64,000 bases of DNA. Origin: Rhodoluna sp. KAS3. Lineage in GTDB: Bacteria; Actinomycetota; Actinomycetes; Actinomycetales; Microbacteriaceae. How positions within the stretch are numbered: position 1 is the first letter of the stretch; each line of letters starts with the position of its first letter. The stretch spans positions 1,116,001-1,180,000 of the forward strand of contig NZ_AP026910.1 of assembly GCF_026000575.1 (NCBI RefSeq). Direction: 5' to 3'. The notes below the pieces were generated by a model, which worked only from the letters and a program-made list of their open reading frames with translations, ran no database searches and was not told the origin of the DNA. Shown in pieces: positions 45,923 to 47,321 of the stretch. The translations under genes were made by a program, and so were the position numbers.

Positions 45923-45937
45923 ATAACCACAAACGCA

Positions 45938-45963
45938 AAAAACGCCCCGTTGGGGGCGTTTTT
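45938..45963 (-). terminator. Terminator next to the tRNA-Tyr 3' fragment (probable original tRNA-Tyr terminator)
   Basis: AAAAACGCCCC-GTTG-GGGGCGTTTTT stem placed just 3' of the tRNA-Tyr fragment. If the element at 45969-47280 were removed, this would directly follow the restored tRNA-Tyr gene. Confidence 0.85.
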
Positions 45964-45968
45964 CGTCT

Positions 45969-46010
45969 GTGGCTAGTGAGGGATTCGAACCCCCGAAGGC
46001 TGAGCCGGCT
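45969..46010 (-). repeat. 42-bp direct repeat, copy of the tRNA-Tyr 3' half (att-like)
   Basis: Identical for 42 bases to 47239-47280 in the intact tRNA-Tyr gene, from the variable arm through the T-arm and acceptor 3' strand to the discriminator base and one base beyond. It lacks the D-arm, anticodon and 5' acceptor strand, so it cannot be a working tRNA. Displaced tRNA 3' fragments like this are the classic trace of tyrosine-recombinase integration. Confidence 0.9.
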
Positions 46011-46089
46011 ACTTTTTTCGCCCTGATAGCCAGGAGAAGAGAATTACGGCGGTGCCTGCAATAAGCATTATCGAAATCTCGAGCGGCAT
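46009..46089 (-). CDS. 26-residue single-helix membrane microprotein
   Basis: A small open reading frame whose ATG (46089-46087) overlaps the TGA of the membrane protein gene by one base (TGATG), a standard translational-coupling arrangement. The product starts MPLEIS, has a hydrophobic stretch IMLIAGTAVILFSWL and ends SGRKK, i.e. one membrane helix with a positive tail, like KdpF or MetS-type accessory peptides, holin-like peptides or small toxins. Its TAG stop spans the boundary between element and repeat. I do not recognise a family; whether it is translated is unproven. Confidence 0.5.
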   Translation of the reverse strand: MPLEISIMLIAGTAVILFSWLSGRKK

Positions 46090-46919
46090 CAGACTCTGAC
46101 CCCCTTTGACTGACTCCATGCCATCACTAGGTTTGGAACCAAAATCACGGATCCGAGGATGGCCCATATCACTGCATTCACTTGTCCAAATGTGAGCGAG
46201 AACTCGTAGTAATCGACTGAGTCGATGCTCACGTAATCCATAGAGATAACAAAGATCATCAACCCGACCGCCAGCGCAGAAACTAATGCTGCCAAAATTC
46301 GAAATGAGTGGAGGTATGTGCGGTCTCGATGTTTCAACTGGAGTTCATCCAAATATTCATCCGGGGCGTCGGCCACTAGACGGACCGAGATTCGAAGCAG
46401 CCACCAAATCAGAAAGATTGGAATTACACCTAGTATTCCGATTCCGGGCTTTATAAAGTCTTCGAACCAGAACAGGGCTGGAGCGCCGAAGATGCTGGCG
46501 ACACCGAGGACAACAAGAATTTTTTGAGCCCGCGCGGTGCGAATTACATCCCACTTGGTGTCATGCATAACGGCATCGATATTTTTTGCTACCTTCTTTG
46601 ATTTTGGATCAGAAGCCATTCCATAGAGTTGTGCGATTGTTCCTTGCTCCGGATGCGATTTCATGTAGAAGTACCAAAGCGGAGTTTCCAAAATCACGAT
46701 CAGAATGAGCGTGAATATGAACCAGTTAGTTTTGAAGAAAAGCAGGTTGAACTCGATGCCTGAGTTGAAGTAGATAGCACCAACTGCACCGATAGTCAGT
46801 AGACCCAAGGTGGCGTCCATCCAGCGAAGACCAGTTACAGACTTAGCTCGCGGATAAATCAAGAGGTAACCAACCGCCATGAAGCCAAGGACGATTGAGA
46901 TTGTGATTAGCTCGTTCAT
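46089..46919 (-). CDS. Seven-helix membrane protein of unknown function, element cargo
   Basis: 276 residues. Predicted helices at about 4-22, 34-52, 60-84, 133-152, 159-177, 206-226 and 244-268. The loop after helix 3 is long, polar and probably cytoplasmic (PEQGTIAQLYGMASDPKSKK and on to about 130). The loop before helix 6 holds DEYLDELQLKHRDRTYLHSF, an acidic-basic stretch that reads like a conserved signature. No enzyme motif is visible. Its ATG overlaps the regulator stop by 4 bp (ATGA), and the microprotein follows with a 1-bp overlap, so all three are one translational unit. Base composition looks more AT-rich than icd or the LacI gene by eye. Confidence 0.75.
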   Translation of the reverse strand: MNELITISIVLGFMAVGYLLIYPRAKSVTGLRWMDATLGLLTIGAVGAIYFNSGIEFNLLFFKTNWFIFTLILIVILETPLWYFYMKSHPEQGTIAQLYGMASDPKSKKVAKNIDAVMHDTKWDVIRTARAQKILVVLGVASIFGAPALFWFEDFIKPGIGILGVIPIFLIWWLLRISVRLVADAPDEYLDELQLKHRDRTYLHSFRILAALVSALAVGLMIFVISMDYVSIDSVDYYEFSLTFGQVNAVIWAILGSVILVPNLVMAWSQSKGVRV

Positions 46920-47152
46920 TTGGATTCCTCATCCAGCCAGAAAATCTCTTCGACTCTGACTTTCAAAATCGCCGCGATGCGCAAAGCCAACACGAGGGAA
47001 GGCGAATACTCACCGCGTTCGATGTAACCGATGGTTTGATAGTGAACTTCGACCTGGTCGGCGAGCTCTTGCCGACTCAGGCCTGAAAGGGCTCGAGCCT
47101 CTTCAAGGCGGTTGGCCACCCGCTCTTCTTCGGCCTTTGATTTTCTACCCAT
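46916..47152 (-). CDS. XRE-family helix-turn-helix regulator, element cargo
   Basis: 78 residues from ATG 47152 (MGRKSKAEEERVANRLEEAR). The HTH is LSRQELADQVEVHYQTIGYI followed by ERGEYSPSLVLALRIAAILK and VRVEEIFWL, the form of small Cro/CI-like repressors that accompany membrane proteins. The frame is open upstream to 47218, but a complete promoter whose predicted start point falls on or next to ATG 47152 makes the shorter form far more likely. It is first in the three-gene operon and probably represses it through the palindrome at 47158-47171. Confidence 0.88.
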   Translation of the reverse strand: MGRKSKAEEERVANRLEEARALSGLSRQELADQVEVHYQTIGYIERGEYSPSLVLALRIAAILKVRVEEIFWLDEESK

Positions 47153-47187
47153 GTATGTAGCATAAATGCTATGTAGTAATAATGCAA
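47153..47187 (-). promoter_or_regulatory. Leaderless promoter with overlapping operator palindrome
   Basis: On the minus strand: TTGCAT (47182-47187), exactly 17 bp, TATGCT (47159-47164), 6 bp, ATG 47152. The perfect palindrome TAGCAT-AA-ATGCTA (47158-47171) covers the -10 box, ideal for autorepression by the XRE protein. Confidence 0.75.
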
Positions 47188-47201
47188 CAAAGGGAACCAA
47201 T

Positions 47202-47237
47202 AAATAAAAAAACCCCACTCGTGGAGGAGTGGGGTTT
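47202..47237 (-). terminator. Terminator of the intact tRNA-Tyr, inside the element
   Basis: AAACCCCACTC / GAGTGGGGTTT stem (47210-47237) with six-base loop and TTTTTATT after it on the minus strand. Confidence 0.92.
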
Positions 47238-47238
47238 A

Positions 47239-47280
47239 GTGGCTAGTGAGGGATTCGAACCCCCGAAGGCTGAGCCGGCT
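47239..47280 (-). repeat. 42-bp direct repeat within intact tRNA-Tyr (att-like)
   Basis: Exact partner of 45969-46010; identity ends at 47281 (G here, A at 46011). Confidence 0.92.
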
Positions 47281-47321
47281 GATTTACAGTCAGATCCCTT
47301 TGGCCGCTTGGGTAACTAGCC
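47240..47321 (-). tRNA. tRNA-Tyr (GTA)
   Basis: 82-nt class II tRNA with long variable arm; acceptor GGCTAGT / ACTAGCC, anticodon GTA within CTGTAAA, T-loop GGTTCGAATCC. Its 3' half is repeated at 45969-46010. Confidence 0.96.

What the first reader, a model, noticed from the sequence alone, without database searches (positions are those of the whole stretch)
45969..47280. Tiny three-gene element integrated at the 3' end of tRNA-Tyr, with no integrase
Seen: a 42-bp exact direct repeat consisting of the 3' half of tRNA-Tyr, 1270 bp apart, one copy inside the intact tRNA. Between them is a fully overlapping operon (XRE regulator, seven-helix membrane protein, 26-residue microprotein). A separate tRNA terminator lies on each side, which fits an element that brought its own tRNA 3' end and terminator. 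Known: tyrosine-recombinase elements leave exactly this pattern, but they normally carry an integrase. Inference: a minimal satellite-like element mobilised in trans, possibly a defence, immunity or exclusion cassette.
Basis: partly seen in the sequence, partly recalled or inferred. Interest (0 to 1): 0.85.

Follow-up and report, generated by a model that had tools for sequence, protein, structure and literature searches.

The report
Trimmed gene island at tRNA-Tyr
A small aquatic-type actinobacterium carries a 1.2-kb piece of foreign DNA with three genes slotted behind its tyrosine tRNA gene; it is most likely a worn-down remnant of a larger mobile element, one of many small tRNA-anchored inserts in its relatives, rather than a new self-moving system.

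Summary
A 42-bp exact repeat of the tRNA-Tyr 3' end brackets 1,228 bp holding an XRE regulator, a multi-helix membrane protein and a 26-aa microprotein, without integrase. A relative, G059, shows the predicted empty site. The insert is poor in G+C.

"Minimal element mobilised in trans" is not shown for this unit. In relatives the operon is longer (36-aa microprotein, then DUF418 and a small exporter-like gene). Here it stops in the microprotein tail, the tRNA repeat supplies two bases of the stop codon, and the repeat is 10 bp shorter than in G007. Its ends match no integrase-bearing unit sampled. I read it as a deletion-trimmed remnant of a tRNA-Tyr insertion.

The wider pattern is known in kind (additive genomic island, CIME). 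In this genus tRNA-Tyr and tRNA-Arg hold integrase-bearing units of about 10-15 kb and units without recognised integrase of 0.65-7.4 kb, sometimes in tandem. One integrase-free tRNA-Tyr unit (G007, DRT4-like reverse transcriptase) carries an attachment arm 72-90% identical to arms at tRNA-Arg, three of them in insertions with an integrase gene.

The parts
47239..47321 (-). intact tRNA-Tyr (gta); its last 42 nt are the proximal repeat
   Evidence: ARAGORN; Rfam
47239..47280 (-). proximal 42-bp repeat (tRNA-Tyr 3' part)
   Evidence: 42/42 identical to the distal copy
47206..47238 (-). tRNA-proximal terminator-like hairpin, inside the inserted unit; of the type seen behind tRNA-Tyr in several congeners
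   Evidence: fold; comparison
47155..47189 (-). conserved promoter/operator-like sequence just upstream of the XRE start, leaving no room for a leader
   Evidence: similar sequence upstream of many other XRE genes of the genus; only match in the window with up to 3 mismatches, 0 in 100 shuffles
46916..47152 (-). XRE family regulator, 78 aa
   Evidence: Pfam HTH_3 46.6 bits
46089..46919 (-). multi-helix membrane protein, 276 aa, with motif SVRLVADAP...LDE shared with relatives
   Evidence: G034 homologue 33% identity; relatives
46009..46089 (-). 26-aa single-helix microprotein; ORFs of 36 aa at the same place in L184 and L186; the last two bases of its stop codon are the first two of the distal repeat
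45969..46010 (-). distal 42-bp repeat, the tRNA 3' part left from the original site
45936..45965 (-). native tRNA-Tyr terminator hairpin, displaced by the insertion; aligns with the one directly behind tRNA-Tyr in G059

Best explanation
It is an integrase-free remnant of an insertion at tRNA-Tyr, of the kind called a CIME or an additive-island unit. A larger element or DNA circle carrying the tRNA-Tyr 3' end recombined with the chromosomal tRNA gene: the tRNA was rebuilt with the incoming 3' end and terminator, and the old 3' end was pushed downstream (the empty site is shown; the recombinase is inferred). A later deletion (inferred) ran from the tail of the microprotein gene to about 10 bp inside the distal attachment core. 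It would have removed the DUF418 and exporter-like genes, the right arm and any integrase, leaving 42 bp of a core that is 52 bp in G007. What remains is a small operon with its own promoter: the XRE protein most likely binds the conserved palindrome-like sequence that overlaps its leaderless promoter and so controls itself, the membrane protein and the microprotein (inferred from conservation). The unit is probably no longer mobile by itself.
For: Exact repeat, intact tRNA and empty site in G059. GC 47.9% against a mean of 54.4% (sd 2.1) for 1,228-bp steps of the window, none as low. Relatives L184 and L186 run XRE, membrane protein (broken into two ORFs in L186), 36-aa microprotein, DUF418 protein (85 and 80 bits), small membrane protein (Sm_multidrug_ex 34.6 bits in L184); in L183 and L185 DUF418 (87 and 84 bits) follows the membrane protein directly. 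The window unit stops inside the microprotein tail and its genome gave no match to the L186 DUF418 protein. Exact core 52 bp in G007, 42 bp here. Integrase-bearing units lie at the same tRNA in G067 and G068, and units without recognised integrase at tRNA-Tyr and tRNA-Arg in other congeners. G007 (Tyr) and G006 (Arg) lack an integrase but keep a right arm like that of insertions that hold one (G007: 72-90% over 94-96 bp); by eye their first 200 bp lack the left arm seen in G059, G005 and G001, as expected after loss of the integrase side.
Against: No relative with the undeleted form of this unit at tRNA-Tyr was seen, so the deletion is inferred. The proximal end looks like a chromosomal tRNA-Tyr terminator, not like the ends of other units, so simple decay does not explain the left boundary. 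The microprotein similarity is weak (E 0.055 for L184 and 0.27 for L186, among other chance-level hits) and rests mainly on position and start-stop overlap. No integrase-bearing unit with a 42-52-bp core at tRNA-Tyr was found in the genus.
Confidence: 0.55

Rival explanations
1. A minimal cassette that is still mobile: an integrase encoded by another element recognises the tRNA-Tyr core and moves the unit in trans.
For: Units without recognised integrase recur at tRNA-Tyr and tRNA-Arg; they lie in tandem with integrase-bearing units in G067 (Tyr) and G007 (Arg). The G013 integrase-free tRNA-Arg unit shares its left end with the integrase-bearing G001 unit (z 31), and the G007 tRNA-Tyr unit shares its right arm with tRNA-Arg units. 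PMT_2-like genes (38-44% identity) sit in units at tRNA-Tyr (G014, G079) and tRNA-Arg (G011).
Against: The window unit shows no arm similarity; its operator begins about 50 bp from the tRNA and its right end is coding up to the repeat. The integrase units G067 and G068 have exact cores of 22 bp, not 42. The operon is truncated.
Confidence: 0.2
2. Homologous recombination after DNA uptake: a congener's tRNA-Tyr 3' end, terminator and adjacent operon entered by a Campbell-type crossover in the tRNA, without a site-specific recombinase.
For: The proximal terminator resembles those directly behind tRNA-Tyr in G083, G062, G034 and G085 and matches the left ends of the G014, G079 and G075 units (z 9.5-13). 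The freshwater actinobacteria Rhodoluna lacicola and Aurantimicrobium photophilum are naturally transformable and recombine linear DNA (PMC11577799 passages). G020 has a 124-bp repeat that takes in the whole tRNA and its leader, and the far end of the small G007 tRNA-Arg unit is a complete tRNA-Arg, which a usual attachment core does not explain.
Against: 42 bp is short for homologous recombination (general knowledge). The tRNA-Tyr loci of G034, G062, G083 and G085 show no XRE or membrane-protein hit. It needs a circular or already duplicated donor.
Confidence: 0.2
3. Ancestral arrangement or decayed tandem tRNA array, not an insertion.
For: Tandem complete tRNA-Tyr copies do exist in G020.
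Against: G059 and G028 have IDH directly after tRNA-Tyr without the unit; the distal copy starts in the anticodon stem, lacks the 5' half, and is still identical; composition differs.
Confidence: 0.03

Closest known systems
CIME (cis-mobilizable element; definition in PMC5704250, passages read)
   Same: Flanked by the two ends of a tRNA attachment site, without integration or transfer genes; congeners show such units in tandem with integrase-bearing ones.
   Different: No parent element is known here, and no arms are recognisable at either end.
Unit of an additive flexible genomic island (Ca. Actinomarinales PMC7771536; Ca. Methylopumilus fGI-2 PMC10872708; Alteromonas PMC4119200; passages read)
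   Same: Gene cassettes inserted at a tRNA in aquatic bacteria, told by a partial tRNA direct repeat; fGI-2 islands are given as 330 bp to 42 kb with 1 to 63 genes.
   Different: The passages read do not tie cassettes to the attachment arms of a particular integrase; some congener units here share such arms.
Tycheposons
   Same: Insertion at a tRNA, cargo genes.
   Different: Described as large and with a tyrosine recombinase (PMC10872708 passages); none here.
Hitcher elements such as CALIN (PMC11389934 passages)
   Same: Recombination sites kept without an integrase.
   Different: No evidence that a helper moves this unit; the site is a tRNA end, not attC.

Membership tests
CIME | flanked by attL- and attR-like sites of a known target gene | tested here: met
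   42-bp exact repeat of the tRNA-Tyr 3' end and empty site in G059
CIME | no integration or transfer genes | tested here: met
   only XRE, membrane protein and microprotein between the repeats
CIME | derived from an ICE or IME by loss of those genes | tested here: inconclusive
   operon truncated at the right end; no parent form seen among the tRNA-Tyr loci fetched
CIME | can be moved in cis after accretion of an integrase-bearing element | not testable with these tools
   tandem arrays seen in congeners G067 and G007 only
additive flexible genomic island unit | gene cassette at a conserved tRNA with a partial tRNA direct repeat, present in some genomes and absent in others | tested here: met
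additive flexible genomic island unit | different cassettes at the same site in relatives | tested here: met
   G007, G020, G014, G079, G067, G068 at tRNA-Tyr
tycheposon | own tyrosine recombinase | tested here: not met
   none in the unit
phage satellite or IME | integrase plus replication, packaging or mobilisation genes | tested here: not met
   no such gene in 1,228 bp
anti-phage defence system | match to a described defence protein | tested here: not met
   membrane protein no PADLOC hit; XRE only generic helix-turn-helix hits

The most novel reading that the evidence does not exclude
In these streamlined actinobacteria, tRNA 3' ends work like the recombination sites of an integron: small integrase-free cassettes (metabolic, defence or membrane genes) carry only the attachment core and arm and are captured, stacked and shed by integrases encoded in larger neighbouring elements, even from one tRNA site to another. 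The window unit would be one such cassette.
Probability: 0.12. Interest if true: 0.75.

Novelty: new member of a known kind. Interest (0 to 1): 0.38.

Why it matters
As a single locus it is a clean but ordinary example of a tRNA-anchored insertion. Its use is that the genus gives a readable series at two tRNA genes, from integrase-bearing units of about 10-15 kb to gene-free scraps of about 160 bp, including units without an integrase that keep an integrase element's attachment arm. That makes the open question of how integrase-free island cassettes move testable, in bacteria with transformable relatives.

Tried and rejected
Trans-mobilisation by the G067/G068 integrases: their units have exact cores of 22 bp, not 42-52 bp. 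Phage origin: the exact 24-bp tRNA-Tyr end is in 0 viral contigs; the membrane protein has no match in phages or plasmids, nor, by a scan for close relatives, in viral contigs. Phage records similar to the tRNA region: 185 and 50, 20 listed each time; many listed are annotated tRNA genes, the perfect ones listed are 21-23 bp long, the rest were not looked at. Own-genome helper: the extra tyrosine recombinase is at tRNA-Ser and no serine recombinase was found. Structure of the membrane protein: five-sequence alignment, mean pLDDT 45.7, not used.

Rows dropped: of 7 genomes with two or more copies, G011, G014, G032 and G064 have them on separate contigs and were not counted there; G011 has two complete flanking contexts and looks mixed. 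G014 was later scored by a 23-bp copy on one contig. G070 and G065 tRNA-Arg units are bounded by partial copies only, with no complete tRNA on the fetched stretch. The tRNA-Arg loci were fetched because they hold copies, so 5 of 11 is biased. One search leaves out copies inside a complete tRNA (G020) and beyond 12 kb (G067, G068).

Literature: papers were read as found passages only (PMC11389934, PMC10872708, PMC7771536, PMC4119200, PMC11577799, PMC5704250); the rest in listings. No title or abstract listed in those searches names tRNA-Tyr insertions in Luna-1 bacteria; the library is partial. Anticodon-loop and T-arm sublocation of integrase sites is recalled; I saw only the title of that work in a reference list.

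Full report
What is there. The 42-bp exact repeat, the intact tRNA-Tyr, the three overlapping genes and a hairpin behind each tRNA end are real. The insert proper is 46011-47238, 1,228 bp, 47.9% GC against a mean of 54.4% (sd 2.1) for steps of that size in the window. The genome is one 1.34-Mb contig. G034, of the same genus, has a contig of the same length, and with the same match, as the named record WLIA01000001.1, an Actinomycetota MAG; the other relatives of the membrane protein found in genome contigs are an uncultured Microbacteriaceae, a Gulosibacter, an Aquiluna and a Trueperaceae MAG. I take the host for a Luna-1-type aquatic actinobacterium; this is inference.

It is an insertion. 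G059 (LacI 94%, YajQ 99%, IDH 88% identity) has IDH, about 166 bp of spacer with a terminator, tRNA-Tyr and LacI, with nothing more between. In one search, 11 of 59 genomes match the membrane protein, the own one included; the best of the other ten is G034 at 33% identity, away from tRNA-Tyr.

The site is a hotspot. The 42-bp pattern (up to 3 mismatches) matches 56 of 67 genomes of the genus; 3 of them (G000, G007, G020) have two copies on one contig. Shorter or imperfect copies mark units in G001, G014, G067, G068, G075 and G079. G067 and G068 hold integrase-bearing units of 15.2 and 14.4 kb, both with a Prim-Pol protein and with methylase genes; in G067 a 1.2-kb unit without integrase follows in tandem. 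G007 (4.8 kb) carries an XRE-TPR protein and a DRT4-like reverse transcriptase (PADLOC Drt4, 327 bits); G020 (4.0 kb) carries DUF3800, XRE-TPR and Amidase_6 genes. No PF00589 hit lies on the contigs of the G007, G020, G014 or G079 tRNA-Tyr units.

Controls. The tRNA-Thr end matches 53 of 67 genomes, none with two copies on one contig (4 have copies on separate contigs); the tRNA-Arg end matches 47 of 67, 10 with two or more copies on one contig. Among fetched loci with at least 2 kb downstream, a free-standing 3' copy within 12 kb is seen at 6 of 46 tRNA-Tyr, 5 of 11 tRNA-Arg (chosen for having copies), 1 of 20 tRNA-Ser and 0 of 23 Thr, Met, Trp, Ala, Ile, Pro and Leu loci.

Attachment classes. 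Exact cores at tRNA-Tyr are 42 bp (window), 52 bp (G007), about 51 bp with one inserted base (second G067 unit), and 22-25 bp in G067 unit 1, G068, G014, G001 and G075; G079 has an imperfect 33-bp copy and G020 124 bp. At tRNA-Arg the integrase-bearing G059, G005 and G001, and G006 and G013 without a recognised integrase, have 44 bp exactly. Comparing 160-bp ends, the right end of the G007 tRNA-Tyr unit matches those at tRNA-Arg in G059, G005, G001 and G006 (z 61, 39, 21, 56); by blastn 94-96 bp at 90, 83, 72 and 89% identity. The left end of the G013 unit matches G001 (z 31). The window unit matches nothing above z 5 at its right end, and at its left only G014, G079 and G075, which begin with the same kind of terminator (z 9.5-13). 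So trans-mobilisation is a fair idea for some units of the genus but has no support for this one.

The cargo is a trimmed operon. XRE relatives occur in 29 of 67 genomes, the own one included. Of 30 XRE loci taken up, 29 gave a hit and 26 of these, the window included, have a multi-helix ORF directly after. An operator-like sequence precedes many: 19 of 33 rows hold TTGCATTA, rows not all independent, against 3 occurrences in the whole window; L136, L160 and L161 show nothing like it. In L184 and L186 the order is XRE, membrane protein (split into two ORFs in L186), 36-aa microprotein, DUF418 protein, small membrane protein; in L183 and L185 DUF418 follows the membrane protein directly. The DUF418 N-terminal motif was also seen after the module in G072 (L151, L199). 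The window unit ends in the microprotein tail, its stop codon TAG made of one base of the insert and two of the repeat. The own genome gave no match to the L186 DUF418 protein; the tool warns that an empty answer without a positive control shows little.

Reading. The missing operon end and the 10 bp missing from the core are both explained by one deletion into the distal attachment core; that is my inference. Age: if the distal copy is unconstrained, 42 of 42 identity argues for an insertion well after the split from G059 (at 0.1 changes per site the chance of none is 0.015), unless gene conversion kept it. What the membrane protein does is not known; control by a self-regulating XRE protein is the best-supported part of its function.

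Noticed in passing
L044:7268-12117 (G007): Integrase-free 4.8-kb tRNA-Tyr unit with an XRE-TPR protein and a DRT4-like reverse transcriptase, whose right end shares about 95 bp with tRNA-Arg elements, three of which hold an integrase.
   Followed up: partly
L194:4891-12359 (G006): 7.4-kb tRNA-Arg unit with thiolase and 3-hydroxyacyl-CoA dehydrogenase genes (Pfam), the same attachment arm and no recognised integrase: a metabolic passenger.
   Followed up: partly
window:47155-47189 and upstream of XRE genes in L134-L163, L183-L186: XRE plus membrane-protein modules across the genus share a similar leaderless operator-like sequence although the membrane proteins differ widely.
   Followed up: partly
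L067:8484-8824 (G001), L073:7772-7928 (G075): Gene-free inserts of 156-171 bp between partial tRNA-Tyr ends, with G+C-rich DNA that looks like a stem-loop before the repeat; in G075 the terminator is repeated too.
   Followed up: no
L117:6471-12054 (G000, outside the window): Small integrated element at tRNA-Ser with a tyrosine recombinase, a D12-class adenine methylase (Pfam) and a replication-like protein (by eye).
   Followed up: partly
L203:8155-8178 (G080): A 24-bp copy of a tRNA-Ser 3' end lies about 145 bp before another XRE module; XRE modules lie 1-3 kb from a tRNA-Ser also in L199, L204 and L185.
   Followed up: no
L189:1129-1590, L190:1003-1470, L192:8481-8963: SnoaL-like single genes 88-93% identical at or near tRNA-Arg copies in G070, G073 and G011.
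   Followed up: partly
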